Shown: positions 22,272-49,979 of the stretch, piece by piece
How positions within the stretch are numbered: the first letter of the stretch is position 1
Layout of the letters: each line of letters opens with the position of its first letter
NCBI RefSeq assembly: GCF_030811655.1
Contig: NZ_JAUSRE010000006.1
Coordinates: forward strand, 62,001-126,000
Length of the DNA stretch: 64,000 bases
Origin: Pseudarthrobacter enclensis
Lineage (GTDB): Bacteria > Actinomycetota > Actinomycetes > Actinomycetales > Micrococcaceae
Direction of reading: 5' to 3'
The notes under the pieces: model-generated
What the model saw: the letters and a program-made list of their open reading frames with translations, nothing else
Told to the model about the DNA's origin: nothing
The model's database searches: none
Position numbers and translations under genes: made by a program

Positions 22272-22285
22272 GTGACCTTTGGCCC
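22272..22285 (+). promoter_or_regulatory. DosR-like box 1 (GTGACCTTTGGCCC)
   Basis: Element of the family described in the findings, 74 bases upstream of the universal stress protein gene at 22360. Confidence 0.75.
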
Positions 22286-22359
22286 TACAGTCCCCTAGTC
22301 CCGGGGGCCACTCTTGAAAGGCAGGAAGCCAGTTCCCCAAACGAGCAGGAAGTGCGGCC

Positions 22360-23226
22360 ATGACATCCCGGAAACCCATCGCTGTTGGCACCGACGACTC
22401 AGCACCGAGCCAGGCCGCCGTCCTCTGGGCAGCCCGCCGCGCACACCGCGCGGGGCTGCCGCTGGTGATCCTCCACGTGGTGGACAACCGGTGGGTTTCT
22501 GAACCGTACCCCTGGTTCGGAACCCTCCAGCAGGCCGGTGAAGAACTCCTCAAGACCGCCGCCGGCCGCCTCGAAGGGACCGTGCCCATCACGCCTGACA
22601 CAGAACTGCTGACCGGCAGTGTGGGAGGGTCGCTGGCAAAATACTCCAAGAAGACCTCGATGATGGTCATTGGCTCCGGCAGCGGGCACTTCGGGGGTAC
22701 CCTCGCCGACCGTGCGCTCCAGGTGGCCACGGCTGCCAAGGTGCCGGTCGCCGTCGTTGGCACCCAGGACCTGGAAGGCCGGACCGGGGTTGTGGTGGGC
22801 GTTGACGGGTCCGCCGAGGCCACGCAAGCCGTCGCCTTCGCGGCCGCTGAAGCGGACCGGGAAGGCGATGAACTCACCGTTGTCTACGCCGTGAATGCCC
22901 CGAATCCCATAGTCGACGCCGGCCTGACACCTGGCGCCCTCGCGGAGGCCATCGTGGACGAGGAACGGGTGGTGCTCTCCGAGACTGTCGCCGGGCTCAA
23001 GGAAGACTACCCGGACCTGACCGTGCACCAGCGGCTTGAAACCGAACGAGGCGCGGTGGACGCGCTCGTCCAGGCTGCTGCCGGGGCGCGGTTGCTGGTG
23101 GTGGGCAGCCGCGGCAGGGGGGCCTTCAAGCGCCTGCTGCTCGGTTCCACTGCACACGGGGTCCTGAGGCACCTTCCCTGCCCCACCGTCATCACGCGGA
23201 CTGACGAAGCACTCAACACCATCTAG
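22360..23226 (+). CDS. Universal stress protein, tandem domains
   Basis: A 288-residue protein with two UspA domains. The N-terminal one (residues 1-140, PIAVGTDDSAPSQAAVLWAA) has a degenerate nucleotide loop (IGSGSGHFGG). The C-terminal one (residues 145-285, VVVGVDGSAEATQAVAFAAA) has an intact ATP motif, GSRG-x9-GST. Two-domain Usps of this type (Rv1996, Rv2005c, Rv2623 class) are core members of the mycobacterial DosR regulon. ATG at 22360, with box 1 upstream. Followed after 65 bases by the DUF4389 gene, probably the same transcript. Role in growth arrest or energy stress is inferred from family and context. Confidence 0.92.
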   Translation: MTSRKPIAVGTDDSAPSQAAVLWAARRAHRAGLPLVILHVVDNRWVSEPYPWFGTLQQAGEELLKTAAGRLEGTVPITPDTELLTGSVGGSLAKYSKKTSMMVIGSGSGHFGGTLADRALQVATAAKVPVAVVGTQDLEGRTGVVVGVDGSAEATQAVAFAAAEADREGDELTVVYAVNAPNPIVDAGLTPGALAEAIVDEERVVLSETVAGLKEDYPDLTVHQRLETERGAVDALVQAAAGARLLVVGSRGRGAFKRLLLGSTAHGVLRHLPCPTVITRTDEALNTI

Positions 23227-23291
23227 GCCGGTCCGCCTGCCGTTCCCGTTGCCACGCCTTTGCGAACTCCGCCGCGGAAGGTCAGGACGCC

Positions 23292-24953
23292 ATGAAGAAA
23301 CCCGCCGCCATCATCATGCTGATCCTCGGGATCCTCATCACGCTTCCCGGGCTGGCCGCTTTGGCGGGCGGTGCCGTGGCATCCGCGGTGGGGTCGGTCC
23401 AGGGTGACGGTTACCTGACCTCCGGCACGTCACGCTTCTCCGTCAACTCCTTTGCCCTGACGTCGCCGCGGGCCGGCGCCATGGGCGAGGACGTCCCGGG
23501 AAGGGTCCCGTTCGATATCGGCACCCTCAGGCTGCGGGTTGCGCCGGTGGTGCCGGACAAACCAGTGTTCGTCGGCATCGGCCGGCAGTCCGACGTCGAA
23601 CAGTACCTGTCCGGCGTGCACCACTCGGAATTGCTCAATATCCGGCAGCGGCCTTTCCGCGCTGACTACCGCGACGTGCCGGGCGGCAACCCGCCGGGGC
23701 CACCGGCCGGCCAGGGCTTCTGGACGGCATCCGTCTCAGGTACCGGGGAACAGGAGCTTACCTGGAGTATCACCCCCGGCGCGTGGGAAGTGGTGGTCAT
23801 GAACGCAGACGCTTCTCCCGGCATTGACGTCCAGGCGCAGGCAGGCTTCCGTTCCGACCTCATCCGCCCTGCAGCAATTGCCCTGCTGGTGGGCGGGGCC
23901 ATTGCCCTGGTGGTTGGCATACCGCTCATCATTGTCGGCGCGGCAGGACTGGGCAGGCACACACAGCCTCCCGTTGGGGGACCGCCAACGGGAGGCCCAA
24001 CCTATCCGGGCGCAACGTATCCTGATCCGGCGTATCCGGCTCCGGCGTATCCGGCTCCGGCGTATCCGGCTCCGGGACATCAGCAGCGAGCACCGGCAGG
24101 CGGGTGGGACCAGTCGGAGTCAACGCCCGGGACCGCGCCCATCCCGCCGCCCCAGCCCTTTATCCCTGTCCCCGGCGGCCCTGCACCGTACCCTGCGAGG
24201 CTTTTCGGTGAGCTCGACCCAGGACTCTCACGGTGGATGTGGCTGGTCAAATGGTTCCTGGCGATACCGCATTTCATCCTCCTGTTCTTCCTTTGGTTCG
24301 CGTTCGTCATCACAACCATCGTGGCCGGGTTCGCCGTCCTGTTTACGGGCCGGTATCCAAGGGCGCTCTTTGACTTCAACGTAGGCGTGATGCGGTGGAA
24401 CTGGCGGGTGGCGTTCTACGCGTACGCTGCCGTGGGCACCGACCTGTACCCGCCCTTCACCCTCAAACGCACCGCCTACCCCGCAGATTTTGATGTGGAC
24501 TATCCGGAGCGGCTCTCCCGCGGCCTGGTCCTGGTGAAATGGTGGCTGCTGTCCATTCCACACCTTCTGCTGATCGCAGCGTTTACCAACACCACGTGGA
24601 GGTGGCGCGCGGACACGAACGTCGACGGAACAACCTATGTCCAGGACGCCGGGCCGTCCCTGCTGGGACTCCTGGTCCTGATCGCGGCAGTCATCCTGCT
24701 GTTCACCGGCCGCTACCAGCGGCCGCTGTTCGACTTCATCCTTGGCATCGACCGCTGGATCTACCGGGTGCTGGTGTATACAGCGCTGATGCGGGATGAG
24801 TATCCGCCGTTCCGGCTCGACCAGGGGCCGGCCGAACCCGTGTGGCCGGCGGAGGCCGCTCCCCCGGCGGCTCCCCCGGCGGCTGCCCGGCCCGCAAGTG
24901 CCCCGCCCACAGGGTCACCGCCGGGCGGCACCCCTCCCGCAGGTGCCCCGTGA
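23292..24953 (+). CDS. DUF4389 domain-containing membrane protein
   Basis: A 553-residue membrane protein. The N-terminal helix IIMLILGILITLPGLAALAGG is followed by an extracytoplasmic domain of about 170 residues and a second helix (AIALLVGGAIALVVGIPLIIVGAAGL). A Pro/Ala/Tyr linker encoded by tandem 15-bp repeats comes next, then two DUF4389 modules, each starting with a helix pair: WLVKWFLAIPHFILLFFLW and LVKWWLLSIPHLLLIAAF. Both carry the paired TGRYPRALFDFNVGVMRWNWRV and TGRYQRPLFDFILGIDRWIYRV motifs. The Pro/Ala-rich tail is disordered. Function unknown. Its stop codon lies inside DosR-like box 2. Confidence 0.85.
   Translation: MKKPAAIIMLILGILITLPGLAALAGGAVASAVGSVQGDGYLTSGTSRFSVNSFALTSPRAGAMGEDVPGRVPFDIGTLRLRVAPVVPDKPVFVGIGRQSDVEQYLSGVHHSELLNIRQRPFRADYRDVPGGNPPGPPAGQGFWTASVSGTGEQELTWSITPGAWEVVVMNADASPGIDVQAQAGFRSDLIRPAAIALLVGGAIALVVGIPLIIVGAAGLGRHTQPPVGGPPTGGPTYPGATYPDPAYPAPAYPAPAYPAPGHQQRAPAGGWDQSESTPGTAPIPPPQPFIPVPGGPAPYPARLFGELDPGLSRWMWLVKWFLAIPHFILLFFLWFAFVITTIVAGFAVLFTGRYPRALFDFNVGVMRWNWRVAFYAYAAVGTDLYPPFTLKRTAYPADFDVDYPERLSRGLVLVKWWLLSIPHLLLIAAFTNTTWRWRADTNVDGTTYVQDAGPSLLGLLVLIAAVILLFTGRYQRPLFDFILGIDRWIYRVLVYTALMRDEYPPFRLDQGPAEPVWPAEAAPPAAPPAAARPASAPPTGSPPGGTPPAGAP
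24031..24075 (+). repeat. Three perfect 15-bp tandem repeats
   Basis: The unit CGTATCCGGCTCCGG occurs three times in a row within the DUF4389 gene and encodes a Tyr-Pro-Ala-Pro-Ala linker repeat. A diverged copy precedes it. Such repeats can vary in number by slippage. Confidence 0.85.
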
Positions 24954-24963
24954 CCTTCGGCCC
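24950..24963 (+). promoter_or_regulatory. DosR-like box 2 (GTGACCTTCGGCCC)
   Basis: 66 bases upstream of the single-domain stress protein gene at 25029. The box contains the TGA stop codon of the preceding DUF4389 gene. Confidence 0.75.
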
Positions 24964-25028
24964 TAGCCCGGCTGCGGGCACCCGGGCATGATGGGCCCTG
25001 ACAGCGCGGTCCTACCGAGGGAGCAGAC

Positions 25029-25496
25029 ATGAGCATCGCCGGGGCACCAATAGCCAGGATCGTGGTGGGCGTGGACGGATCCGAAGCATCGGTGGAGGCA
25101 CTCCGCCAGGCCCAACGGCTTGCCACTCCGCTGGGGGCCAAGGTGCAGGCGGTTGCCTGCTGGGAGTACCCGCAGATGTACAGCGGCTACGTCATGATGG
25201 GCATCGAGGGCTTCGAAGAAGGTGCCAGGAAGGTCCTGGAAGAGGCCGTCGCGCAGGCTTTCGGAGCCGAGACGCCGGCCAACGTCACCTCCACGCTCAT
25301 CCGCAGCCATCCCCGTGAGGCCCTGATCGACGCCAGCCGCGAGGCAGACATGATCGTGGTGGGGCGCCGCGGGCACGGTGGATTCGGTGGCCTGCTCCTG
25401 GGCTCGGTGAGCTCCGCCATCGTCGCGCACGCCCACTGCCCCGTCCTGGTGGTGCACACCCCCGAGGACGGTTTCGAACCGGCCAGGGGTTCCTAA
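25029..25496 (+). CDS. Universal stress protein, single domain
   Basis: A 155-residue UspA-fold protein starting ARIVVGVDGSEASVEALRQAQ, with a complete ATP-binding loop (VVGRRGHGGFGGLLLGSVS, G-x2-G-x9-GS). Probably a cytoplasmic ATP-binding dimer acting in stress survival. Start ATG 25029 with GGGAGCAG at suitable distance. Close relative of the stress protein encoded on the other strand at 30697-31176, suggesting duplication within the island. Confidence 0.93.
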   Translation: MSIAGAPIARIVVGVDGSEASVEALRQAQRLATPLGAKVQAVACWEYPQMYSGYVMMGIEGFEEGARKVLEEAVAQAFGAETPANVTSTLIRSHPREALIDASREADMIVVGRRGHGGFGGLLLGSVSSAIVAHAHCPVLVVHTPEDGFEPARGS

Positions 25497-25535: not shown

Positions 25536-26522
25536 GTGAGCACGGTGCCGGCCAGTGATGGACGACGGCGGGCGGCAGCCCTCGCGCTCGCTGGCGCCCT
25601 GGTGGTGGTCGCCGTTGCCCTCGCCCTGCTGCTTCCGGGACGGACTGCCGGTCCGCCGTCGGGCGCGCCGTCTCCATCCGCCGTTTCACCCTCAGCACGG
25701 GGCGGCCAGACCACCACTCCCAGCCCCGGTGCTTCCGTGCCGGTGCAGGTTACGGACACTCCCGAAGCAGGGGAAACCCCCGTCCAGCCCCCGGTTACGG
25801 TGCCGCCCCTTACGGAACCGGAGCCCACAGATATTCCGCCCCAGCCGCCGGCGCCGGGCACTCCCCCGCAACCGGCACCGTTTCCGGAATCCCTCCGCGG
25901 CCAGGACCTGACCGCCATTCCGGCGGCCGGCCGCGTGGTTGCACTGACCTTTGATGCCGGCGCGAATGCGGCAGGACTGCCAAAAATCCTCTCCACCCTC
26001 TCCGCCAAAGGCGTCACGGGAACTTTCTTCCTGACGGGCAACTGGGTCGCCAACAACCAGGCGGCCGTAGCACAGATCGCCGCAGCGGGGCACCGCGTGG
26101 CCAACCACTCCATGACCCACCCCGGATTCACAGGCTTGAGCAACGACCAGATCGCCCAACAGGTGCGCGGTGCGGAGCAGGCCATCCTTGCGGCCGGCGC
26201 CGATCCCAGGCCGCTGTTCCGCTTCCCGTTCGGTGAGCGGGATGCCCGGACCATCGCCGCAGTGAACAGCCTTGGCTACGTGGCTGTCCGGTGGACCGTG
26301 GACACACTCGGCTGGAAAGGCACCAGTGGAGGGATCAGCGCCCAGGTAGTAGCCGACCGCGTCCGCGCGGGGTTACAGCCGGGGGAAATTGTCCTCATGC
26401 ACATCGGTTCCAACCCGGATGACGGGACCACCCTTGACGCGGATGCCCTCCCCCAGGTGATCGACAACATCCGGACTGCGGGATATGGATTCACTACCCT
26501 CGATGCCCTGCTGGCGCGGTGA
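25536..26522 (+). CDS. Polysaccharide deacetylase (NodB domain)
   Basis: A 328-residue exported or membrane-anchored enzyme. The N-terminal signal-anchor AAALALAGALVVVAVALALLL is followed by a Pro/Thr/Ser-rich spacer of about 80 residues and a NodB domain (about 130-325). Motif 1 is TFDAGANAAG: the catalytic Asp is kept, but the second Asp of TFDDG is Ala, as in some PdaA-like deacetylases. Motif 2, NHSMTHP, has the two metal His; motif 3 is RFPFGERD and motif 5 is LMHIG. Probably removes acetyl groups from peptidoglycan or another glycan. GTG start 25536. It lies between a Usp and a P-type ATPase gene, so it likely belongs to that operon. Confidence 0.88.
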   Translation: MSTVPASDGRRRAAALALAGALVVVAVALALLLPGRTAGPPSGAPSPSAVSPSARGGQTTTPSPGASVPVQVTDTPEAGETPVQPPVTVPPLTEPEPTDIPPQPPAPGTPPQPAPFPESLRGQDLTAIPAAGRVVALTFDAGANAAGLPKILSTLSAKGVTGTFFLTGNWVANNQAAVAQIAAAGHRVANHSMTHPGFTGLSNDQIAQQVRGAEQAILAAGADPRPLFRFPFGERDARTIAAVNSLGYVAVRWTVDTLGWKGTSGGISAQVVADRVRAGLQPGEIVLMHIGSNPDDGTTLDADALPQVIDNIRTAGYGFTTLDALLAR

Positions 26523-26529
26523 GCCAACC

Positions 26530-29307
26530 GTGGCGAAAACCAGGCCCACACGGAACCGCCAGGCGAAAACCAGGCGGGCGGACAATGCCGGTGACACCGC
26601 GCACCACGGGTTGCCAATCCACGAAGTAGTGCTCCTGCTTGGAACCGACGCTGCCCGGGGCCTTGGCCCGGACGAAGTGGCGCGGAGAAGGCCCCAGTTC
26701 GGCGCCAACGAGCTCCCCCGCGCGCACGGACCCGGCATTGCCCGCAAGCTGGGGCGCCAGTTCAACAACCCCCTGGTGTATGTCCTGCTGGCCGCCGGAA
26801 TGGTTACCGTTTTCCTGGGCGAGTTCCTGGACTCCGCCGTCATCCTGGCAGTGGTCCTGGTCAACACACTGATCGGTTTCATCCAGGAGGTACGGGCGGA
26901 AGCTGCGCTGGATGCCCTCCATTCACTGGTCCGCACGCGGGCCGCGGTCATGCGCGGCGGTGAGCGGAAGCAGGTTCCCTCCGAAGACCTGGTCCCCGGC
27001 GACCTCGTCCTGCTTGGGGCCGGCGACAAGGTCCCCGCCGACCTCCGCCTGGTTCGCCTGTCCGCGCTCCGGGTGGACGAATCGGCGCTGACCGGAGAGT
27101 CGGACCCCGTGTCCAAGGACGAAGTAGTGCTGCCCCGGCTCACAGCCGTGGCCGACCGCAGGAACATGCTCTACAGCGGAACCCTGGTAACAGCCGGCAG
27201 CGGTGCAGGCATCGTCGTGGCCATCGGCGGGGAAACCGAACTTGGCGAAATCCACCGGCTCATGGGCACCGTGCAGCCTGCGGCCACGCCACTGACCCTG
27301 AAACTCGCGCGGTTCAGTAGCACGCTCACCGTGGCCATCCTGGCCCTCGCTGCCGTGGCCTTCCTTGCCGGCGTGGCACGCGGCGAACAGCCGGGACAAA
27401 TGTTCACGGCCGCCGTCGCCCTGGCAGTTGGAGCCATCCCCGAAGGACTGCCCGCCGCGGTGACGGTGACGCTTGCAATCGGCGTCCGACGCATGGCGCG
27501 GCGCCGGGCCGTGGTGCGCCGCCTTCCGGTAGTGGAAACACTGGGCAGCACCACAGTGATCTGCTCGGACAAGACGGGCACTTTCACCGAGAACCAAATG
27601 ACAGTCCGTTCGGTGTGGACCCCCTCCGGAACATACGACGTAACAGGATCCGGGTACGGGCCGGAAGGACACATCCGGCCCGCAGCAGGCGGCGAACGGC
27701 AAGCGGACACCGCCACCCCGACCCGCGAAATCGAGGACGAGGCCCTCCGCGTGTGCCTGCTTGGCGGCGCGGCCTGCAACGACTCAGCCGTCCGCCGGGA
27801 GGGATCCTCCTGGCAGGTGCGGGGCGACCCTACGGAAGCTGCAATGCTGGTGGCTGCGGGGAAGGGCGGCATCATCGTGTCGGATTTCCTGGCCGCCAAC
27901 CCACGCGGAGCAGAACTGCCGTTTACCTCGGAGCGGCAGTTCATGGCAACCCTGCATGCTTCGACGCATCCGTCCGGCGGCGGCACTGTGTTCGCCAAAG
28001 GGGCCGTGGAACGGGTCCTGGATCTTTGTCGCGGTGAAATGGGCGCGGACGGTGACACGAGGCCACTCCGCAGGCATGTTGTGCTCAATGCCGCACACGC
28101 TTTTGCGGACAGCGGGCTGCGGGTCCTTGCCACTGCCACCATGTCCCTTCCCGTGGCGGGCGGCTCCCTCGCCGCCGCGGAGTTGCGGGGCCGGATGACC
28201 TTTACGGGACTTCAGGCCATGCAGGACCCGCCCAGGCAAGCGGCCGCAGCCTCCGTTCAGGCGTGCCAACAGGCCGGGGTTGCCGTCAAAATGATCACGG
28301 GAGACCATGTGCGGACCGCTGTGACCGTGGCTGCAGCGGTGGGGCTGGCCGCTGACAGCGCCGCCGGGACGGCCCTCACCGGCGAGGAGTTGGACGCCAT
28401 CCCGGCCGGCGAGTTCCCGGATGCGGTGGAGCGGGCCACGGTTTTTGCCCGTGTTTCACCGGAGCAGAAGCTGCGCCTCATCAGGGCCCTGCAGGCCCGT
28501 GGGCACGTGGCCGCCATGACCGGGGACGGTGTGAACGATGCGCCGGCCCTTCGGCAGGCGAACGTAGGCATTTCCATGGGACGCACCGGGACTGAGGTGG
28601 CCAAGGAGGCCTCGGACATTGTCCTGACCGATGATGACTTTGCCACCATCGAGGCAGCCGTCGAGGAAGGCCGCAATGTCTTTGACAACCTGACCAAGTT
28701 CATCGTTTGGACGCTGCCCACCAATATGGCGGAGGGACTGGTGATCCTCGTTGCCATCGTGCTGGGTGCCGCGCTGCCCATCCTGCCCACCCAGATCCTC
28801 TGGATCAACATGACCACAGCGGTGGCGCTCGGCCTGATGCTGGCCTTCGAACCAAAGGAACCCGGCCTGATGTCGCGGCCACCGCGGGCACCGGGCCGCC
28901 CCCTCCTGACCTGGGCCCTCACCGTCCGGATCCTGCTCGTATCGGCCCTCCTGGTCGCCGGCACCTGGTGGCTCTTCGACCACGAACTCAACAATGGAGC
29001 AACAGTGGCAGAGGCGCGCACCTCGTCCGTGAACCTCTTCGTAGCCGTGGAAGTCTTCTACCTCTTCAGCTGCCGGTCGCTGGTCCGGCCCGCATGGCGG
29101 ACAGGACCCTTCGGCAACCGCTGGCTCCTGGCAGGGGTGTTGGTGCAGGGGGCCGGGCAACTGGCCCTTACCTATACACCCCTGATGAACGATCTCTTCC
29201 ATACAGCCCCCATCGGTCCAGACGCATGGCTGCGGATTTTTGGACTGGCACTGGCCGCGTCGCTGGTTGTTGGTGTGGACAAGCGTTTGCGGCGGCAGGG
29301 CTTCTGA
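26530..29307 (+). CDS. P-type cation-transporting ATPase, CtpF-like (P2 type)
   Basis: A 925-residue P-type ATPase. N-terminal cation-ATPase domain, actuator loop with LTGESDPV, M4 motif AIPEGLPAAVTVTLAIG, phosphorylation site SDKTGTFT (Asp347), nucleotide domain with FAKGAVERVL, hinge MTGDGVNDAPAL, and about ten membrane helices. The PEGLP motif and length resemble Mycobacterium CtpF, itself a DosR-regulon Ca2+-type pump, so Ca2+ or a related ion is likely. GTG at 26530 lies 7 bases after the deacetylase stop without a clear ribosome site, which suggests translational coupling. Confidence 0.92.
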   Translation: MAKTRPTRNRQAKTRRADNAGDTAHHGLPIHEVVLLLGTDAARGLGPDEVARRRPQFGANELPRAHGPGIARKLGRQFNNPLVYVLLAAGMVTVFLGEFLDSAVILAVVLVNTLIGFIQEVRAEAALDALHSLVRTRAAVMRGGERKQVPSEDLVPGDLVLLGAGDKVPADLRLVRLSALRVDESALTGESDPVSKDEVVLPRLTAVADRRNMLYSGTLVTAGSGAGIVVAIGGETELGEIHRLMGTVQPAATPLTLKLARFSSTLTVAILALAAVAFLAGVARGEQPGQMFTAAVALAVGAIPEGLPAAVTVTLAIGVRRMARRRAVVRRLPVVETLGSTTVICSDKTGTFTENQMTVRSVWTPSGTYDVTGSGYGPEGHIRPAAGGERQADTATPTREIEDEALRVCLLGGAACNDSAVRREGSSWQVRGDPTEAAMLVAAGKGGIIVSDFLAANPRGAELPFTSERQFMATLHASTHPSGGGTVFAKGAVERVLDLCRGEMGADGDTRPLRRHVVLNAAHAFADSGLRVLATATMSLPVAGGSLAAAELRGRMTFTGLQAMQDPPRQAAAASVQACQQAGVAVKMITGDHVRTAVTVAAAVGLAADSAAGTALTGEELDAIPAGEFPDAVERATVFARVSPEQKLRLIRALQARGHVAAMTGDGVNDAPALRQANVGISMGRTGTEVAKEASDIVLTDDDFATIEAAVEEGRNVFDNLTKFIVWTLPTNMAEGLVILVAIVLGAALPILPTQILWINMTTAVALGLMLAFEPKEPGLMSRPPRAPGRPLLTWALTVRILLVSALLVAGTWWLFDHELNNGATVAEARTSSVNLFVAVEVFYLFSCRSLVRPAWRTGPFGNRWLLAGVLVQGAGQLALTYTPLMNDLFHTAPIGPDAWLRIFGLALAASLVVGVDKRLRRQGF

Positions 29308-29362: not shown

Positions 29363-29376
29363 GGGACCAATGACTC
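29363..29376 (+). promoter_or_regulatory. DosR-like box 3 (GGGACCAATGACTC)
   Basis: 83 bases upstream of the SHOCT-protein gene at 29460. The left half is canonical and the right half degenerate (compare box 8, GGGACCTTTGACTC). Confidence 0.6.
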
Positions 29377-29459: not shown

Positions 29460-29714
29460 GTGTACGGCTGGAATGACGGCATGGGCCTGTGGGGCTATGT
29501 CCTGATGAGCATCAGCATGGTGTTGGTCTGGGGCGCGATCATCACCGGTATCGTGCTGCTGGCCCGTTCCCTGCGTGCGCCTTCCCCGCACCCCGCGCCC
29601 CCGCCGCCGCGGGTGGCAGAGGACGTGCTGGCTGAGCGTTTCGCCCGCGGCGAGATCGACACCGCCGAATACCAGAACAGGCTGGCCGTCCTGCGCGGCC
29701 ACCCGGGCACCTGA
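29460..29714 (+). CDS. Small membrane protein with SHOCT domain
   Basis: An 84-residue protein with one membrane helix (YVLMSISMVLVWGAIITGIVLLA), a Pro-rich linker and a C-terminal SHOCT helix pair, DVLAERFARGEIDTAEYQNR. The GTG at 29460 is supported by GGAGG 8 bases upstream. Function unknown; SHOCT is an oligomerisation module. First gene of a three-gene unit with DUF3040 and hemerythrin. Confidence 0.82.
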   Translation: MYGWNDGMGLWGYVLMSISMVLVWGAIITGIVLLARSLRAPSPHPAPPPPRVAEDVLAERFARGEIDTAEYQNRLAVLRGHPGT

Positions 29715-29754
29715 CGCCGTGGCTCCCGCAGGCAACGGACAATGGGGTGCAGCT

Positions 29755-30072
29755 GTGCCACTCTCTGAATTCGAGAAACGCGAACTCGAACTGATCGGCC
29801 ACGGCCTGGAGGACGAAGACCCCAGGCTCGCCTCCCTCCTGAGCCGCGACGCCTTCAGGATTTCGCTCCGGAGCCGGGTCAGGCGCGGACTCGTACTCTT
29901 CGCCACGGGCGTCTGTGTCCTGCTCCTTGGCCTGGCAGCCCGGGCGCCTTACCTGGGCATCGCCGGGTTCGCGGTCATGAACGGAGGAGGCTACTGGGCG
30001 GTCAAGGACCTCCGCTGGTCCCTGCGGCACATGAACCGGCACGCCACCCAACTGGAAGGCAACACCGAATGA
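29755..30072 (+). CDS. DUF3040 domain-containing membrane protein
   Basis: A 105-residue protein starting PLSEFEKRELELIGHGLEDEDP, the hallmark of actinobacterial DUF3040, followed by two membrane helices (LVLFATGVCVLLLGLAA and YLGIAGFAVMNGGGYWAV). Function unknown. The GTG at 29755 follows a GGGG stretch. Its stop overlaps the hemerythrin start by 4 bases (ATGA). Confidence 0.85.
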   Translation: MPLSEFEKRELELIGHGLEDEDPRLASLLSRDAFRISLRSRVRRGLVLFATGVCVLLLGLAARAPYLGIAGFAVMNGGGYWAVKDLRWSLRHMNRHATQLEGNTE

Positions 30073-30696: not shown

Positions 30697-31176
30697 TCAG
30701 GGTGCGACCGCTGCGCCCACCTGGGCGCCCTGGTCCGGGGCTTCGTCGTCCGCCTCGGGTGCATGCACCACCAGCACCGGACAATGCGCGCGGCTGACGC
30801 ATGCTGAACTCACCGAACCGGGGACGAAACTCCCGTGGCCCCTCCTGCCCACGATGAGCAGGGACGCGTTGCGGCTGGCGTCAATCAGTACGGGACCGGG
30901 TTTCCCCCTGACCAGCCGGGGATGAACAAAGGACGGTAGTTCCCCAAAGGCGTCCGCCAGCGCCTGCTGGAGCACCTGCTCTGCCGCATACTTGAAACCC
31001 TCGATTCCCACGGCCAGGTACACCCCGTAACCTGCCGGGACGTCCCAGCAGGCCCAGGCTTCAACTGTCGCGGAGAGTGGCTCCGCCATCACCCGGGCAA
31101 CCCGGAGCGCGGAGATGGAGGAATCAGACCCGTCCACACCGACGATGATCCTGGGGTGCCGTTTGGGGGCGTTCAT
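30697..31176 (-). CDS. Universal stress protein with shortened ATP loop
   Basis: A 159-residue UspA protein (RIIVGVDGSDSSISALRVAR). It is closely related to the stress protein at 25029, but its nucleotide loop reads GRRG-HGSFVP-GS: only six residues lie between the second Gly and GS instead of nine. ATP binding may therefore be lost. The ATG at 31176 follows GGAG at 6 bases; a longer start at 31275 would place box 4 inside the gene. Divergent from devR. Confidence 0.88.
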   Translation of the reverse strand: MNAPKRHPRIIVGVDGSDSSISALRVARVMAEPLSATVEAWACWDVPAGYGVYLAVGIEGFKYAAEQVLQQALADAFGELPSFVHPRLVRGKPGPVLIDASRNASLLIVGRRGHGSFVPGSVSSACVSRAHCPVLVVHAPEADDEAPDQGAQVGAAVAP

Positions 31177-31261
31177 GCCGGGCTCCAATCTCTGCATCGT
31201 CGCTGCGTTCCCACATGCGGCCGTCGGACCCACCTTGGACCAGAACCTCTTTCCGCGCATA

Positions 31262-31275
31262 GGGCCGAAGGTCAT
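31262..31275 (-). promoter_or_regulatory. DosR-like box 4 (ATGACCTTCGGCCC on minus strand)
   Basis: 85 bases upstream of the universal stress protein gene at 31176, in the region shared with devR. It differs from box 2 only at its first position. Confidence 0.7.
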
Positions 31276-31337: not shown

Positions 31338-31351
31338 CGGACTTTGGTCCC
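31338..31351 (+). promoter_or_regulatory. DosR-like box 5 (CGGACTTTGGTCCC)
   Basis: Nearly symmetric element 102 bases upstream of devR, in the devR/usp divergent region. It suggests autoregulation of devR. A weaker relative, GGGTCCTTTTAATCC, follows near 31418. Confidence 0.7.
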
Positions 31352-32169: not shown

Positions 32170-34089
<1,920 letters not shown>

Positions 34090-38041: not shown

Positions 38042-38054
38042 GCAGGAGGCAGGA

Positions 38055-40993: not shown

Positions 40994-41028
40994 GGCTCGA
41001 TTCTGGTCTCCGGCGGGATGTGCCAGCA

Positions 41029-41042
41029 GAGTCTTTGGTCCC
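41029..41042 (-). promoter_or_regulatory. DosR-like box 9 (GGGACCAAAGACTC on minus strand)
   Basis: Lies 35 bases upstream of ppsA, in the 75-base gap to the P-type ATPase gene. Confidence 0.75.
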
Positions 41043-43624: not shown

Positions 43625-44082
43625 ACGGCGTCCGCCTCCTGGCCCACCAGGACCACCGGACAGATGGAGTGGGCGGCGCAGGCCTTGCTGACGGAGCCGA
43701 TGGAGGACTTGAGCAGTCCGCCTTCGCCGTGCCTGCCCACCACCAAGGCCTGGGCGCGGCGGCTTTCCTCCACCAGCACCTTCGCCGGCGGCCCGAACTT
43801 GATGGTCACGTCGATGTTCTCCGGGCGTTCCCCGGAGAAGGCGCGGCCCAGCGCATCATCGACAAGGCGCCCGGCAGCATCCTCCAGCCTTGCAGTGAAC
43901 TGCCGGTCCGCTCCTTCAAGGCGCGACATCACCAGGTAGTCCGGCATCCCGACGCATGAGATGACTTCGAGCCGGGTGCCCAGGCGGGATGCGAGCATGC
44001 CCGCGTAGCGGAGGGCTGCGGACGAGTACTCTGAGCCGTCAACTCCCACGATGACAGGTTTGGCCCCTGTGTCTGCATTCAT
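43621..44082 (-). CDS. Universal stress protein, single domain
   Basis: A 153-residue UspA-fold protein (PVIVGVDGSEYSSAALRYAG) with an intact ATP loop, VVGRHGEGGLLKSSIGSVS (G-x2-G-x9-GS). It is coupled to the downstream P-type ATPase through a GTGA overlap; usp-ATPase pairing also occurs elsewhere in the island. The start is ATG 44082, or GTG 44091 with three extra residues; neither has a strong ribosome site. Confidence 0.9.
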   Translation of the reverse strand: MNADTGAKPVIVGVDGSEYSSAALRYAGMLASRLGTRLEVISCVGMPDYLVMSRLEGADRQFTARLEDAAGRLVDDALGRAFSGERPENIDVTIKFGPPAKVLVEESRRAQALVVGRHGEGGLLKSSIGSVSKACAAHSICPVVLVGQEADAV

Positions 44083-44118
44083 GGAGACCACGATCCCGCC
44101 AGGCGCCCGCCACGGGAA

Positions 44119-44132
44119 GGGCCAAAAGTCAT
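44119..44132 (-). promoter_or_regulatory. DosR-like box 10 (ATGACTTTTGGCCC on minus strand)
   Basis: Lies 36 bases upstream of the usp-ATPase pair and overlaps the stop codon of the upstream heavy-metal ATPase gene. Identical in sequence to box 12. Confidence 0.75.
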
Positions 44133-46084
44133 GCCGGCGGCAGCCCCCGGGACTTTAGTTTCGGGTCGGCGCCATGCAGGGCACGCAGGCCGTTCAGGAT
44201 TGTTGCCAGGTCCACCAGCTCCTGCAGGAGGGCTCCGGCCACGGCTGGAATGTACCCGGTCATGGCGATGGCCATCAGGACGACGCTCAGCCCTATGCCG
44301 GTCCAAATGCTCACCAGCGCTACGGCCATGGTCCGCTTTCCGATGGCCACTGCCTGGGCCACCTTGGACAGGTCATCAAGCATGATCACGACGTCGGCAG
44401 ATTCGCTTGCCGCCGTGGCCCCTTTGGCCCCCATCGCAATCCCCACGTCTGCCGCTGCCAGGACAGGAGCATCGTTGACACCGTCACCCACCATGAGGAC
44501 CGGCCGTTCCCGAATCGCGGCCACTGTGTTGACCTTGTCCTCGGGAAGGCATTCAGCCTGGACATGGTCGATGCCGGATTCTTCGGCGATGTGCGCGGCT
44601 GTGGCGCTCGCATCCCCGGTCAGCAGCATGGTGTTGTGCACGCCAAGGCGTCGCAGGCTGGCGAGGGTGTCCACGGCATTGCCGCGCAATGGATCCTTCA
44701 TGATCAGGGCGCCTGCGTACCGGCCGTCTACCGCGACGTGGACGGCCAGCTGACCGCTGTGGACTGCTGCTTCCCTGAATCCGCTGGAGGAGCTTCGGAC
44801 CAGACCGGCCTTTCCCACCACCACCTGCCGGCCCCCGCAGACAGCCTCCACACCGTGGGTTGCGCTCTCGGTGGCCTGCTGCACCGGCAGAAGATCTAGG
44901 TTGGCTGCCGCAGCGGCTTCGATCACCGAGGCTGCCAGAACATGTGACGAGTACTGCTCCGCCGAGGCAGCCAGCTGCAGGACCTTCCGGCTGCCCAGCG
45001 TTTCGCCCTGGCCGGGGGCCAGACGGATCTCGTCCAGGACGGGGCGGCCGGAGGTGAGCGTTCCGGTCTTGTCGAAGACCGCTGACTGTGCCTTCGCAAG
45101 CTGCTCAAGGGTCCTGGTGTTCTTGATAATGATGCCCTTGTGTGCTGCCTGGCTGGTACCCGCCAGGAACGCCACCGGGGCGGCGATCAGGAGCGGGCAG
45201 GGCGTGGCCACCACCAGCACCTCGGCGAAGCGGAGCGCCTCGCCGGACAGGAACCAGGCCATAACGGCCATGGCCAGCGCCAGGGCGGTAAAGGGAACAG
45301 CGTAGCGGTCAGCAAGCCGGACCACCGGCGCCCGGCTGTTGGATGCCTCCTCGACCAGCGCAATGATGCGGCTGTACTGTGAGTCCGCGGCGGAAGCGGC
45401 TGCCCGCAGCCGGATGGCCGCCACGCCGTTTACCGCGCCGCTGAGCAGCTGTTGGCCCCTGGTGCGCTCGACGGGAAGGCTCTCTCCCGTCAGCGACGAT
45501 TCGTCCAGGCTCGCTGAGTCCGAGAGGAGTTCGCCATCCACGGGTACCAGCTCGGAGGGGCGGACCACCAGCACGTCCCCTGGAACAACGTCACCGATGG
45601 GCGTTTCCTCGAGTACTCCGCTGGCTCCTTCACGGTGCGCGAAGCGCGGGGCCCGGTCCAGCAGGGACCGGAGTTCACGGGCAGCACGGCCCTGGGCAAA
45701 GTTCTCCAGCGCTTCCCCGCCGGTGAGCATCAGGATGACCACCAGGGCAGCCAGGTACTCACCCACGGCAACGGTGCTCGCTATCGCCATCAGGGCCAGC
45801 AGGTCGATACCCCAGCGTCCTTCCCGCAGGGCGCGCAGCATCCCCGCCGCACGGACCACCACGATCACGGCGGCGTAGGCCGAGGCGAGGACGCGCGCTT
45901 CCTCGCCCAGGCCGGATTGCAGCAGCACCAGCGCAGCCACCAGCATCAGACACGTCAGGGCGACAACGGGATACCGCCTGACGAAGTTCCGGCCCTTTTC
46001 GAGGGGCGACGCAGCGGGCCCCTGGCCATCAGAATTGCCGGGGCTTCCGCTCGCAGCCGCGGGCGGAGCGGGTTGCCTCCTCAT
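44129..46084 (-). CDS. Heavy-metal-type (P1B) P-type ATPase without N-terminal metal domain
   Basis: A 651-residue pump: two leading helix pairs, actuator with SLTGESLPVERTRG, intramembrane motif VATPCPLLIAAPVAFLAG (Thr294-Pro-Cys-Pro297), phosphorylation site FDKTGTLTSG (Asp338), hinge MVGDGVNDAPVLAAADVG and two terminal helices. TPCP replaces the CPC or SPC motif of most P1B pumps, and there is no N-terminal HMA or CxxC domain, so the metal cannot be assigned. ATG 46084. Divergent from the flavodoxin gene; three DosR-like boxes lie between them. Confidence 0.9.
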   Translation of the reverse strand: MRRQPAPPAAASGSPGNSDGQGPAASPLEKGRNFVRRYPVVALTCLMLVAALVLLQSGLGEEARVLASAYAAVIVVVRAAGMLRALREGRWGIDLLALMAIASTVAVGEYLAALVVILMLTGGEALENFAQGRAARELRSLLDRAPRFAHREGASGVLEETPIGDVVPGDVLVVRPSELVPVDGELLSDSASLDESSLTGESLPVERTRGQQLLSGAVNGVAAIRLRAAASAADSQYSRIIALVEEASNSRAPVVRLADRYAVPFTALALAMAVMAWFLSGEALRFAEVLVVATPCPLLIAAPVAFLAGTSQAAHKGIIIKNTRTLEQLAKAQSAVFDKTGTLTSGRPVLDEIRLAPGQGETLGSRKVLQLAASAEQYSSHVLAASVIEAAAAANLDLLPVQQATESATHGVEAVCGGRQVVVGKAGLVRSSSSGFREAAVHSGQLAVHVAVDGRYAGALIMKDPLRGNAVDTLASLRRLGVHNTMLLTGDASATAAHIAEESGIDHVQAECLPEDKVNTVAAIRERPVLMVGDGVNDAPVLAAADVGIAMGAKGATAASESADVVIMLDDLSKVAQAVAIGKRTMAVALVSIWTGIGLSVVLMAIAMTGYIPAVAGALLQELVDLATILNGLRALHGADPKLKSRGLPPA

Positions 46085-46161
46085 TCAGCCCCACATCCAG
46101 GGGGATGGTGACGGTCGTGGCGCATGGATCCGAACCTACCCGGGTCCTGGCAGCCGGGCTA

Positions 46162-46175
46162 GGGCATTTGGCCCC
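46162..46175 (-). promoter_or_regulatory. DosR-like box 11 (GGGGCCAAATGCCC on minus strand)
   Basis: 77 bases upstream of the heavy-metal ATPase gene; first of three boxes in the 199-base divergent region. Confidence 0.6.
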
Positions 46176-46200: not shown

Positions 46201-46214
46201 ATGACTTTTGGCCC
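46201..46214 (+). promoter_or_regulatory. DosR-like box 12 (ATGACTTTTGGCCC)
   Basis: 69 bases upstream of the flavodoxin gene; same 14-mer as box 10. Confidence 0.75.
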
Positions 46215-46233: not shown

Positions 46234-46247
46234 GGGACCAAGGTTGA
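46234..46247 (+). promoter_or_regulatory. DosR-like box 13 (GGGACCAAGGTTGA)
   Basis: 36 bases upstream of the flavodoxin gene. Left half canonical, right half poor. Confidence 0.5.
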
Positions 46248-46283: not shown

Positions 46284-46736
46284 ATGAAAGCCGTCATCCT
46301 TTATGACACCGCGTATGGGAACACCAGAACCATCGCCGAAGCCGTGGCGGCCAATCTCGGGCGAAGCGCGGCCGCTGTTCCAGTTGACGGTTTTGATGCT
46401 GCCGCGCTGCACCCGGGGGACCTGCTCGTCGTCGGGAGCCCCATCAACGGCTGGAAGCCAACCGCCAGGATCAGTGAAACGCTGGCTGGCCTAGCCCGCC
46501 ACGGGCTCTCCGGAGTGAAAGCCGCCGCCTTCGACACAAGGGTAAAGCTGTTCATTCATGGTGATGCCGCGAAAAAGATGACCAGAGCCCTCGCGGACGC
46601 GGGCGCCAGCATCGTGGGCGGCCCCATGGCTTTCTATGTCAAAGGCAGCGAAGGCCCGCTGATCGATGGGGAGAAAGAGCGGGCGGCAGCGTGGGCCGCC
46701 GACCTTGCGGCGTCGCTGGACATCCGGAAGGCATGA
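46284..46736 (+). CDS. Flavodoxin domain-containing protein
   Basis: A 150-residue flavodoxin-fold protein with an FMN phosphate-binding loop (YDTAYGNTRTIAEAVA, normally T/SxTGxT) and VVGSPINGWKPTARISETL. Ends with an alpha/beta half, KLFIHGDAAKKMTRALADAG. Probably an electron carrier or quinone reductase-like protein. ATG 46284 with CGGAG upstream. Two boxes in front suggest strong DevR control. Confidence 0.88.
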   Translation: MKAVILYDTAYGNTRTIAEAVAANLGRSAAAVPVDGFDAAALHPGDLLVVGSPINGWKPTARISETLAGLARHGLSGVKAAAFDTRVKLFIHGDAAKKMTRALADAGASIVGGPMAFYVKGSEGPLIDGEKERAAAWAADLAASLDIRKA

Positions 46737-46910
46737 GCAAGCTGCCTCCGGGTGCACCACCTGGAGCTCACGGAAACTTCACAGCTCGACGCCGAGGTGC
46801 GGGGCTGGCTCGATGCTGGAAGCGTACGACGCCGCCGCCTGATCAACCTGCGTTCCTTCCAGGGTCCTATGGCCCTGTCAGCCGCCAGGCAGCACGTCCA
46901 CGCTGGTGCC

Positions 46911-47378
46911 ATGACTGAAAATGACCAGCCCCAAAAGATCCATATCACCGAACAACCAGTCGCTGTGGTCCGTGAACGGGTTCCCATGGATGCGCTGACG
47001 GGTTTCTTCGGCCGGGCCTTTGGTGCCGTCATGGCGGCGGTCCAGACGCAAGGCGCCAGCCCTGCCGGTCCGCCGTTCGCGCGCTACCACGGAATGCCGG
47101 GCGAAACCGTTGACGTCGAGGCGGGGTTTCCCGTCGCGGGAAACTTCCACGGTACCGGCGACGTGGCCAGCGGCACACTTCCCGACACGGATGCCTTCGA
47201 AGCCGTCCACGTGGGGCCGTACGACACTTTGGGCACCACATACGACGCCATCCGGGAACGCATGGCGGTCGAAGGGGCGGCGCCTGCCGACAGCATGTGG
47301 GAGTACTACCTGACCGACCCCGAACAGCAGCCGGATCCTGCTACATGGCAGACCCGGGTTGTCTGGCCCGTCGCTTAA
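46911..47378 (+). CDS. GyrI-like small-molecule-binding domain protein
   Basis: A 155-residue protein of the AraC effector-binding/GyrI-like fold: KIHITEQPVAVVRERVPMDAL, GPPFARYHGMPGETVDVEAGFPV, AFEAVHVGPYDTLGTTYDAI and MWEYYLTDPEQQPDPATWQTRVVWPV. No DNA-binding domain is attached; such stand-alone domains bind small hydrophobic molecules. The frame is open back to GTG 46752 (53 more codons of unknown similarity), so the start is uncertain. I chose ATG 46911 because the fold begins there. Confidence 0.78.
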   Translation: MTENDQPQKIHITEQPVAVVRERVPMDALTGFFGRAFGAVMAAVQTQGASPAGPPFARYHGMPGETVDVEAGFPVAGNFHGTGDVASGTLPDTDAFEAVHVGPYDTLGTTYDAIRERMAVEGAAPADSMWEYYLTDPEQQPDPATWQTRVVWPVA

Positions 47379-47774: not shown

Positions 47775-47843
47775 TTCTTCCTCCCGGCGGACCGCAAACA
47801 TCTTCCAACGTGGCATTCTGCCAAGGACCGGGACCGCGGGCCA

Positions 47844-47857
47844 GGGCCTTTGGTCAC
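47844..47857 (-). promoter_or_regulatory. DosR-like box 14 (GTGACCAAAGGCCC on minus strand)
   Basis: 69 bases upstream of the hypothetical gene at 47774; both half-sites good. Confidence 0.7.
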
Positions 47858-47992: not shown

Positions 47993-48006
47993 GGGACTTT
48001 GGTCCC
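47993..48006 (+). promoter_or_regulatory. DosR-like box 15 (GGGACTTTGGTCCC), best match
   Basis: Almost perfect palindrome, GGGAC-TTTG-GTCCC, within CAGGGACTTTGGTCCCTAAA; it is the closest match to the mycobacterial DosR consensus. 154 bases upstream of the YegP-like gene. Confidence 0.8.
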
Positions 48007-48433: not shown

Positions 48434-48454
48434 CACTGCGCAGCCGGGGAGGGG

Positions 48455-49912
48455 CTAAAAGCCCGAGGAACTGCCGGAGCCGGAGAAGCTTCCACCGCTG
48501 CTGCCGTATCCGGTGGTGCTGCCACCGCCTCTGGCTGAGTTGACGCTGCTCACTCCGGTGTTAAAACCGGAGCTGAACGTGGCTACCGTGAAAAACTGGT
48601 ACGACGGATACACGGTGCCCAGGATGCTCGGTTCGTAGGTCCTTCCCCTGCGGTGGTCCAGTCCCTCATGGGCGGTATCCATCTGTTCGCGCATCAGGCG
48701 TGCCTCGCGCTCATTCCTGGCAAACCCCTGAATCACGGTTTCAGCGTGGTTCTCCAGCAATCCTGAGAGCCGGGTCCGTGCCTCGTAGAGCCGGTCCAGG
48801 GCCTTTTCCGGTGTGATCCGGCCGTCGGCAAGTTCCGCCGTCCACTGTTCTATCTCCCGCAGGCTCCCGTCCCGGAAGGACCGCAGGGCCGTGGCCGTGG
48901 CGGAATCCCCTTGCCCGTGGCGTTTGGCCAGGAGCTGTTCCAGTCCGGCCAGGTCCTTCCGGAAGGGGGCGAGTTGACGGTCCCAGGCGGTTGGCCACGT
49001 GGCGGCGCGGTTAAGCAGCGCGTTGCTGTCCGCGATGACGTCATCCAGCGCGTCAAGTTCGGCGGCACTGTCCGCAAACTGCCGGGCAAGCCTGAGGTTC
49101 TTCCGGCTGCTCAATGATCGTTTGCCAAGTGCATGCACCTGGTTGGACAGCTCGGTGGCAGCGGCATACCGGCTGAGGAAGGTCCTGTGCTTCTCCAGGA
49201 CCTGGCTGCCGTAGCGGGATTCTTCAGGGATGGTGGCGGCATTGAGTTCCGTCACGTCCAGGTCCATGCTGACATTGGAATAGCTTCGGTCCCCGCGTTC
49301 GATCTGTTTGCGGCAGGCCGCCCGGGTCACCGCGCGCACAACAAGCCACGCGGCCGCCGCCAGGACAACGAGTCCGAAGGAAACCCACGCTGTGATCAGG
49401 AACGCTGCCGACCTGTACCACGGCTGGTTGATCAGCTCCGCCGCGCGGCGGATTCCGGCCACCGTGCCGTCGGTCCACTGTGCATCCCGGAACAGTTCCT
49501 TGGACGCATCCTGGATGTCGCTGCGCTGCTCCAGCGACACCTTCCGGTCCTCGCCCATGTACGTCCCCACATGCCGGCCAACCGGGTCAAGCGCGAAAAT
49601 GAACAGCCCGTCCGCCCATTTCTGACCGTCTGCGCTGATCCACTCCGGATGCCGGGACCGCGCGAACTTCAGGACCTCTTCATTCAGGTTGTCCTCCGCC
49701 GTTCCGTTGTAGGTGAAGACGGCAACCTTGGTGGGTTCGTAGAACTGTATGCGTTCGACGGCGGGCAGCAGGGTTTTTTGGTCGAGCACCCCGGCCGTGT
49801 CCTCCACCACAACAGCGACGGGTGCCACGGCCGCGCCTGGCGCCGCCAACCCCAGGAGAAGGGCCGCGACGGCAAGCATCATTGCGGCGATCCGGCTGAC
49901 CACGCTGCCCAT
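48455..49912 (-). CDS. DUF5129/TPM-like exported membrane protein
   Basis: A 485-residue protein with a signal peptide (MMLAVAALLLGLAAPGAAVAP), an extracytoplasmic domain of TPM-like pattern (VVVEDTAGVLDQKTLLPAVER, TKVAVFTYNGTAEDN, WADGLFIFALDP), a membrane helix (AAFLITAWVSFGLVVLAAAAWLVV), a long coiled coil (about 230-425) and a Gly/Ser-rich tail. It matches DUF5129 of Actinobacteria; function unknown. ATG 49912 with GGGGAGGG close upstream. Box 16 lies between it and the divergent Usp. Confidence 0.82.
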   Translation of the reverse strand: MGSVVSRIAAMMLAVAALLLGLAAPGAAVAPVAVVVEDTAGVLDQKTLLPAVERIQFYEPTKVAVFTYNGTAEDNLNEEVLKFARSRHPEWISADGQKWADGLFIFALDPVGRHVGTYMGEDRKVSLEQRSDIQDASKELFRDAQWTDGTVAGIRRAAELINQPWYRSAAFLITAWVSFGLVVLAAAAWLVVRAVTRAACRKQIERGDRSYSNVSMDLDVTELNAATIPEESRYGSQVLEKHRTFLSRYAAATELSNQVHALGKRSLSSRKNLRLARQFADSAAELDALDDVIADSNALLNRAATWPTAWDRQLAPFRKDLAGLEQLLAKRHGQGDSATATALRSFRDGSLREIEQWTAELADGRITPEKALDRLYEARTRLSGLLENHAETVIQGFARNEREARLMREQMDTAHEGLDHRRGRTYEPSILGTVYPSYQFFTVATFSSGFNTGVSSVNSARGGGSTTGYGSSGGSFSGSGSSSGF

Positions 49913-49965
49913 GTCCCTCCCCAATACTTAGAATCAGGATGGAACCAGGGAGCGGGGCCGCCAAA

Positions 49966-49979
49966 GGGCCGAAGGTCCC
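49966..49979 (+). promoter_or_regulatory. DosR-like box 16 (GGGCCGAAGGTCCC)
   Basis: 36 bases upstream of the Usp gene at 50016 and 53 bases upstream of the divergent DUF5129 gene at 49912. Confidence 0.75.

What the first reader, a model, noticed from the sequence alone, without database searches (positions are those of the whole stretch)
22272..49979. Sixteen copies of a DosR-like 14-bp box across a 28-kb island
Reading both strands by eye I find one element before almost every transcription unit from 22.2 to 50.0 kb: 22272 GTGACCTTTGGCCC, 24950 GTGACCTTCGGCCC, 29363 GGGACCAATGACTC, 31262(-) ATGACCTTCGGCCC, 31338 CGGACTTTGGTCCC, 34013(-) GAGCATTTTGGCCC, 34054 GGGACCTTCTTCCC, 37960 GGGACCTTTGACTC, 41029(-) GGGACCAAAGACTC, 44119(-) ATGACTTTTGGCCC, 46162(-) GGGGCCAAATGCCC, 46201 ATGACTTTTGGCCC, 46234 GGGACCAAGGTTGA, 47844(-) GTGACCAAAGGCCC, 47993 GGGACTTTGGTCCC, 49966 GGGCCGAAGGTCCC. 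Pattern: NKGACYWWNGGYCC. The mycobacterial DosR box core is GGGACTWWAGTCCC. I noticed none in the flanking 22 and 13 kb. This looks like a whole dormancy-type regulon packed in one place in a non-mycobacterial actinobacterium.
Basis: partly seen in the sequence, partly recalled or inferred. Interest (0 to 1): 0.93.

Follow-up and report, generated by a model that had tools for sequence, protein, structure and literature searches.

The report
Oxygen-sensor regulon packed in one island
A relative of Arthrobacter carries thirteen conserved copies of a DevR-type switch sequence, each set 23 or 24 bases before a promoter-like hexamer facing the next gene in one 28-kb cluster around its devR and devS genes, so the cluster is likely a stress and dormancy regulon turned on when oxygen falls, of a kind already known from tuberculosis bacteria and Streptomyces.

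Summary
All 16 sequences lie where stated. Thirteen are supported by conservation and position; 34013, 46234 and 47993 are not, and 49966 faces DUF5129 on the other strand. The island holds a DevR response regulator with the DNA-reading residues of tuberculosis DevR, a DevS kinase with the heme histidine, and stress genes. Each of the 13 boxes is followed by T and, 23-24 bp on, by an ANNNT hexamer facing the gene (13 of 13; 1 of 13 the other way). The rule held in 34 of 36 boxes from 11 genomes not used to find it, and +25 was the top offset in five of five actinobacterial groups. A strict box occurs 96 times in 25 devR-positive genomes and twice in 10 without a close devR. Best reading: a class II DevR regulon, a new member of a known kind (OsdR of Streptomyces, DevR of M. 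tuberculosis). Two paralogues stand out: DevR2 lacks the DNA-reading residues; DevR3 keeps them but has a degraded receiver. Binding and oxygen response are untested.

The parts
22272..22285 (+). DevR box GTGACCTTTGGCCC before USP1; -10 CACTCT at 22309-22314
24950..24963 (+). DevR box before USP2, polysaccharide deacetylase and P-type ATPase 1; -10 CATGAT at 24987-24992
29363..29376 (+). DevR box before a short reading frame and DUF3040; -10 AATACT at 29400-29405
31262..31275 (-). DevR box before USP3; ANNNT at +26 (hexamer 31232-31237); the listed USP3 start lies inside the box, so the true start is probably downstream
31338..31351 (+). DevR box before devR itself (predicted autoregulation); -10 AACAAT at 31375-31380
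34054..34067 (+). DevR box before the Pyridox_ox_2 gene, USP4 and P-type ATPase 2; -10 TAGGCT at 34091-34096; ATG at the predicted start of transcription
   Evidence: (0.99 conserved)
37960..37973 (+). DevR box before Hsp20, inside the end of the ATPase 2 gene; -10 GATGGT at 37997-38002
41029..41042 (-). DevR box before PEP synthase; -10 CAGAAT at 41000-41005; ATG at the predicted start of transcription
44119..44132 (-). DevR box before USP5 and P-type ATPase 3; -10 GATCGT at 44090-44095
46162..46175 (-). DevR box before P-type ATPase 4; -10 TAGGTT at 46133-46138
46201..46214 (+). DevR box before flavodoxin and GyrI-like gene; ANNNT at +26 (hexamer 46239-46244)
47844..47857 (-). DevR box before a small gene of unknown function (start about 47774); -10 CAGAAT at 47815-47820
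49966..49979 (-). DevR box GGGACCTTCGGCCC facing DUF5129 (the finding lists it on the plus strand); ANNNT at +26 (hexamer 49936-49941)
47993..48006 (.). near-perfect palindrome GGGACTTTGGTCCC without a -10 at +25 or +26 on either side; kept in 3 of 9; not counted as a promoter box
34013..34026 (-). listed site before devS; not conserved; rejected
46234..46247 (+). listed site; box letters not conserved; rejected
31454..32134 (+). devR: NarL-type response regulator, receiver plus LuxR-type DNA-binding domain, KTVKN reading helix
32170..33924 (-). devS: GAF sensor histidine kinase, heme His kept, glycine at the place of DosT Gly85; convergent with devR
22360..23226 (+). universal stress protein (USP1)
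23292..24953 (+). DUF4389 protein
25029..25496 (+). universal stress protein (USP2)
25536..26522 (+). polysaccharide deacetylase
26485..29307 (+). P-type cation ATPase 1
29575..30072 (+). DUF3040 protein
30697..31275 (-). universal stress protein (USP3)
34103..34561 (+). pyridoxamine 5'-phosphate oxidase-like protein
34631..35497 (+). universal stress protein (USP4)
35522..38041 (+). P-type ATPase 2
37998..38477 (+). Hsp20 small heat-shock protein (true start probably further in)
38561..40993 (-). phosphoenolpyruvate synthase
41069..43624 (-). P-type cation ATPase 3
43621..44091 (-). universal stress protein (USP5)
44129..46084 (-). heavy-metal P-type ATPase 4
46284..46736 (+). flavodoxin
46752..47378 (+). 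GyrI-like protein
48455..49924 (-). DUF5129 protein
50016..50867 (+). universal stress protein (USP6); no supported box of its own

Best explanation
The island carries 13 conserved DevR-type boxes, each followed 23-24 bp on by an ANNNT -10-like hexamer facing the next gene, and it most likely works as a DevR/DevS regulon in which phosphorylated DevR would bind beside the -35 position and recruit RNA polymerase when oxygen is low. Predicted steps: DevS, a heme GAF kinase with a glycine at the DosT oxygen-pocket site, would lose oxygen and phosphorylate DevR at its receiver aspartate. DevR dimers would bind single boxes whose 3' end lies about 35 bp before the start of transcription (class II activation). 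The box before devR would give positive feedback, while devS, convergent and without a conserved box, would stay outside that loop. Shown: the boxes, their conservation, orientation, spacing, tracking with devR, and the residues kept in DevR and DevS. Inferred: binding, phosphorylation, the oxygen signal and the direction of control.
For: Regulator: best solved match M. tuberculosis DevR 3c3w, KTVKN kept; Lys179, Lys182 and Asn183 are the base contacts (PMC4082495, passages). Kinase: best matches are DevS-type GAF domains (2vzw, 2y8h, 2y79), HPPM kept, glycine at the aligned Glu87/Gly85 place (residue roles from passages of PMC4082495; that 2vzw is DosT, that 2y79/2y8h are Glu87 mutants and that the HPPM histidine is His149/His147 is recalled). 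Boxes: 12 of 15 aligned sites conserved above flanks, the 13th in 7 of 8 relatives with its gene. Geometry: T follows and ANNNT lies at +25 or +26 toward the gene in 13 of 13, away in 1 of 13; in relatives 96 at +25 and 12 at +26 only of 112. Genomes not used to find the rule: 23 of 36 at +25 and 11 more at +26 only; other offsets 0.72 on average, 5 at most. Five actinobacterial groups, box-only matrix: +25 is the top offset in 5 of 5. Box tracks devR: 96 strict boxes in 25 devR-positive genomes, 2 in 10 negative; reversed pattern 8 and 8. Core gene order of the island kept in the 11 relatives fetched.
Against: No binding, phosphorylation or expression data exist here. Three of 16 listed sites fail. 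The plain consensus with one mismatch is not significant by shuffling. No conserved second box lies within 100 bp upstream in 12 box families, whereas M. tuberculosis promoters are described as bound cooperatively at two or more sites (PMC3029386 and PMC5360333, passages). In PMC5360333 itself the DrrS construct with the box was not more active than the core promoter without it, so the class II position does not guarantee activation through the box. devS is not in an operon with devR. DevR3 might act at the same boxes. In the Nocardioidaceae group the +25 peak (0.141) is barely above +47 (0.125).
Confidence: 0.85

Rival explanations
1. The boxes are read by another NarL-type regulator of the same genome, chiefly the paralogue DevR3, which keeps the reading helix but seems unable to take phosphate; DevR itself would be secondary and the regulon would not be gated by oxygen.
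For: DevR3 keeps KTVKN in 7 of 7 orthologues and has lost the acidic pair and lysine of the receiver in 5 of 7.
Against: DevR3 orthologues (58% or more) are found in 7 of 35 genomes, whereas strict boxes are found in all 25 devR-positive genomes; devR itself sits inside the island with a box before it.
Confidence: 0.07
2. The boxes are DevR sites but mostly repressing ones: DevR would shut these promoters in air rather than activate them in hypoxia.
For: The osdR null mutant of Streptomyces showed up- and down-regulated genes (PMC5069765, passages). The box lies against the -35 position, where a repressor could also act. In PMC5360333 (passages) a box-containing construct was less active than the core promoter when DosR was supplied.
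Against: The geometry matches the class II activator position described for M. tuberculosis DosR (same paper), and apart from the T no strong column stands between box and -10, so the promoters look weak without help.
Confidence: 0.06
3. Chance palindromes in GC-rich DNA picked out by eye.
For: The stated formula with one mismatch is not above shuffles, and 3 of 16 sites fail.
Against: Conservation, tracking with devR, and a fixed -10 distance in genomes not used to find it.
Confidence: 0.01

Closest known systems
OsdK/OsdR regulon of Streptomyces coelicolor (SCO0167-SCO0219), PMC5069765
   Same: DevR/DevS-type pair in a cluster with many universal stress proteins and boxes before most nearby units; a pyruvate phosphate dikinase gene and an alcohol dehydrogenase among predicted targets; 16-nt palindrome AGGGCCGATCGGCCCT (abstract and passages).
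   Different: Here the box is AT-rich in the middle (GACYWWNGGCCC), devR and devS are convergent rather than an osdR-osdK operon, no nitrate reductase gene is among the proteins annotated, and four P-type ATPases are present.
DevR(DosR)/DevS/DosT regulon of Mycobacterium tuberculosis
   Same: DevR reading residues, heme GAF kinase, GGGAC/GTCCC half-sites, proximal site by the -35 position at a near-constant distance to the start (PMC5360333, PMC3029386, PMC4082495, passages); universal stress proteins among targets (passage); Hsp20 among targets (recalled).
   Different: No conserved second box per promoter instead of two or more; most boxes in one 28-kb block; one DosT-like kinase next to devR; a second pair whose DevR2 lacks the DNA-contact residues.
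DosR motif of M. smegmatis, PMC6448022
   Same: The stringent input consensus GGGACTTNNGNCCCT includes the trailing T, and ANNNT is the common -10 there (passages).
   Different: TGAC is nearly as common as GGAC in the upstream half here (0.42 and 0.56).

Membership tests
DevR/DosR-type regulon | NarL-family response regulator with DevR DNA-contact residues Lys179, Lys182, Asn183 | tested here: met
   Alignment with 3c3w keeps KTVKN; residues from PMC4082495 (passage)
DevR/DosR-type regulon | Receiver aspartate for phosphorylation (Asp54 in M. tuberculosis) | tested here: met
   Aligned D kept in the ILDGRLPDG stretch; phosphorylation itself not testable
DevR/DosR-type regulon | GAF heme sensor kinase with proximal histidine | tested here: met
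   HPPM kept in the alignment with the DevS-type GAF domains; heme binding not testable
DevR/DosR-type regulon | Palindromic GGGAC/GTCCC-type box before target genes, more often than chance | tested here: met
DevR/DosR-type regulon | Proximal box overlapping or touching the -35 position at a constant distance | tested here: met
   Predicted -10 at +25/+26 in 13 of 13 and 34 of 36 further boxes; transcription starts not mapped
DevR/DosR-type regulon | Induction by hypoxia or NO through the kinase | not testable with these tools
   No expression data
M. tuberculosis-style DevR promoter with two or more boxes (not the family filed under) | A second box close upstream of the proximal one | tested here: not met
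   No conserved second box within 100 bp upstream in 12 families; the test uses the strong-box matrix and could miss weak secondary sites. Single-box promoters are described too (DrrS, passage)

The most novel reading that the evidence does not exclude
DevR has been split in three in this clade: DevR reads both signal and DNA, DevR2 takes the signal but has lost all three DNA-reading residues in 11 of 11 orthologues, and DevR3 reads the same boxes without phosphorylation. The dormancy regulon would then be tuned by a built-in phosphate sink or dominant-negative partner and by a constitutive reader, on promoters that obey one geometry (box, T, 23-24 bp, ANNNT) across the actinobacteria.
Probability: 0.3. 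Interest if true: 0.75.

Novelty: new member of a known kind. Interest (0 to 1): 0.5.

Why it matters
The island gives a large and compact non-mycobacterial model of the dormancy switch studied in tuberculosis: one sensor, one regulator and 13 promoters with one box each, whose geometry can be tested directly. The fixed box to -10 distance seen in five actinobacterial groups gives a simple rule for predicting DevR targets in GC-rich genomes, where the box alone is too weak, and it points to likely off-island targets here. The two complementary degenerate paralogues would let one ask how a two-component switch is damped by its own duplicates.

Tried and rejected
Rejected: the formula NKGACYWWNGGYCC as a description of all 16 sites; sites 34013 and 46234 and 47993 as a promoter box; the plus strand for 49966; PPDK as the name of 38561-40993 (the PEP synthase model passes its cut-off with 1128 bits, the PPDK model has 112 against a cut-off of 843); a conserved strong second upstream box; the off-island match on contig 36 (L165), which has no ANNNT at +25 and runs into a long coding frame. 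Led nowhere: four paper searches for this system in Arthrobacter or Micrococcaceae (listings only: 5, 0, 2 and 121 papers, of the last 12 listed, none with a title on DevR regulation). Structure prediction was not used.

Rows dropped before counts: 7 of 145 orthologous boxes (core letters missing). In the 112: families 47993 and 49966, the window's own boxes, and 47844, for which the file held only the window. In the 13: the three rejected sites; the strand of 49966 was set after seeing the pattern. In one search: 36 of the 41 strict boxes that one search lists in the 13 devR-positive genomes outside the 12 used; those of G022 (3), G031 (1) and one of G012 were not fetched. In one search: G026 and G029 (both without a close devR) were not given. 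In one search: 11 of the 25 positive genomes and 8 of the 10 negative ones (G003 and G035, each with one strict hit, were left out), and its listing was cut. In one search: of five own off-island stretches fetched, L166 did not match the pattern used, so 4 were tested. In one search: two further paralogue loci (L204, 44%; L211, 62%, with two copies, one of which keeps KTVKN) are not counted as DevR2 orthologues. In one search the G008 rows of USP1 and USP2 are edge artefacts. In one search, 5 of 12 genomes do not match the pattern before DUF5129, and 3 of 11 relatives gave no match to the small gene behind 47844.
Full report
What was claimed.

The observation. All sixteen sequences are where stated. 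The M. tuberculosis core with up to three mismatches gives 14 against 5.7, with 0 of 100 shuffles reaching it, but several of those matches lie outside the listed sites. A leave-one-out oriented matrix puts 12 of 16 sites at 12 bits or more, a score reached 21 times in 359 kb sampled from the same genome and never in the 34 kb of flanks. Over the whole 4.74-Mb genome the exact pattern KGACYWWNGGYCCT occurs 11 times, 7 of them in the island, against 10 for the reversed pattern; the pattern was drawn from these sites, so the count is a check on concentration, not an independent discovery.

Conservation. The core gene order of the island is kept in the 11 same-genus relatives fetched, two stretches each; single genes are missing or moved in some (the flodoxin-like gene, for example, was not found in G010, G016, G020, G025 and G034; G020 and G036 have inserts), and G008 is cut by a contig end. 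Aligned upstream regions keep 12 of 15 sites well above the 60 bp on either side, for example 0.99 against 0.62 before the oxidase-like gene and 0.92 against 0.38 before USP3. The sixteenth, 47844, was outside that alignment and is kept in 7 of the 8 relatives where its gene was found. 34013 is less conserved than its flanks, 46234 does not keep the box letters, and 47993 is kept in 3 of 9.

Promoter geometry. Anchoring 138 orthologous boxes (7 of 145 dropped) shows, outside the box, three strong columns in the 60 bp downstream: T at +1 (0.89), A at +25 (0.79) and T at +29 (0.76). In the window 10 of the 16 listed sites have ANNNT with A at exactly +25, against 0.44 on average at other offsets. 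After dropping the three failed sites and turning 49966 to face DUF5129, 13 of 13 have it at +25 or +26 toward the gene and 1 of 13 in the other direction; in relatives 96 at +25 and 12 at +26 only of 112. For 49966 the strand was reassigned after seeing the pattern; 7 of 12 genomes, the window included, match the pattern there, with ANNNT at +26 in 6 and +25 in 1. On 36 strict boxes in 33 stretches from 11 genomes that were not used to find the rule, 23 are at +25 and 11 at +26 only; other offsets average 0.72 with a maximum of 5. These 36 are 36 of the 41 strict boxes that one search lists in the 13 devR-positive genomes outside the training set, and some are orthologous to each other. With a box-only matrix on 80 named loci in five groups (Micrococcaceae and kin, Nocardioidaceae and kin, Micromonosporaceae, Streptomycetaceae, others), +25 is the top offset in each (z 3.8 to 6.4; the Streptomycetaceae set is small, 20 oriented hits, and in the Nocardioidaceae set +47 comes close, 0.125 against 0.141). 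ANNNT is the common -10 of M. smegmatis promoters (PMC6448022, passages). A box ending about 35 bp before the start is the class II position described for DosR (PMC5360333, passages), although in that paper the box did not raise the activity of the construct tested. The genes at 34103 and 40993 have their ATG at +36, so leaderless messages are predicted there.

The box tracks devR. TGACYTTNGGCCCT occurs 96 times in 25 same-genus genomes with a close devR (E 1e-60 or better) and twice in 10 without (reversed pattern 8 and 8). The looser RKGACYWWNGRCYCT gives 146 in 11 positive genomes and 13 in 8 of the 10 negative ones (reversed pattern 63 and 43; sums made by hand; G003 and G035 not included). 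In the near relatives the strict boxes sit mostly in the island; in others (G013, G017, G018, G023, G030) they are scattered. By the look of the first residues the genes behind the scattered boxes are of the same sorts, universal stress proteins and P-type ATPases, plus a metallo-beta-lactamase/beta-CASP-fold protein (only the last, L171, was tested). So packing is a trait of this lineage, not of the system.

The regulators. DevR matches M. tuberculosis DevR best among solved structures and keeps the reading helix. DevS matches DevS-type GAF domains best, keeps the heme-ligand histidine and has glycine where DosT has Gly85 (PMC4082495, passages; which chains are DosT or Glu87 mutants is recalled), which would favour a stable oxygen complex. 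devR and devS are convergent here, as in 39 of 80 named loci (14 of the 80 showed no DevS).

Beyond the island. Four exact off-island boxes of the own genome were tested; three have ANNNT at +25. They stand before a zinc alcohol dehydrogenase, whose frame is interrupted near its start in this assembly, a glyoxalase-fold protein and a small secreted-looking protein. An alcohol dehydrogenase is also among the predicted OsdR targets. A second pair on contig 8 (DevS2 60%, DevR2 52%) has lost all three DNA-contact residues in DevR2 in 11 of 11 orthologues (own and 10 relatives, 66% identity or more), receiver aspartate kept; DevS2 keeps the heme histidine in 10 of 10 relatives but has arginine in this genome. 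DevR3 on contig 5 keeps KTVKN in 7 of 7 orthologues and has lost the receiver's acidic pair and lysine in 5 of 7 (that these residues serve phosphorylation is recalled knowledge).

Judgement. This is a DevR-type regulon by every sequence test made, a new member of a known kind. Searches for it in print (listings only) showed nothing on such a regulon in Arthrobacter or Micrococcaceae; the library lacks most subscription journals, so that is no proof of absence. Binding, phosphorylation and the oxygen signal are inferred from the families and were not tested.

Noticed in passing
L160:9648-10424 (own contig 8): DevR2, a DevR paralogue with intact receiver aspartate but all three DNA-contact residues lost, in 11 of 11 orthologues; likely a sink or partner rather than a DNA binder.
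   Followed up: partly
L160:7913-9619 (own contig 8): DevS2 has arginine in place of the heme histidine in this genome, while 10 of 10 relatives keep histidine.
   Followed up: partly
L161:9904-10548 (own contig 5): DevR3 keeps the DNA-reading helix but has a receiver without the acidic pair and lysine in this genome and four relatives.
   Followed up: partly
L160 around 2726, 3592, 11505, 11572, 14484: Five composite box hits of 11 bits or more near devRS2, where about 1.3 are expected from the control rate; the pair may itself belong to the regulon.
   Followed up: no
L163:2031-3173: Zinc alcohol dehydrogenase behind an off-island DevR box; the frame from the likely ATG is interrupted after 27 codons in this assembly.
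   Followed up: no
window 46862-46875 (+): A further composite hit (17.9 bits) inside the GyrI-like gene; probably chance.
   Followed up: no
L171:1540-2967 (relative G017): In relatives with a scattered regulon a metallo-beta-lactamase/beta-CASP-fold protein follows a DevR box; no such gene is among those annotated in this island.
   Followed up: no
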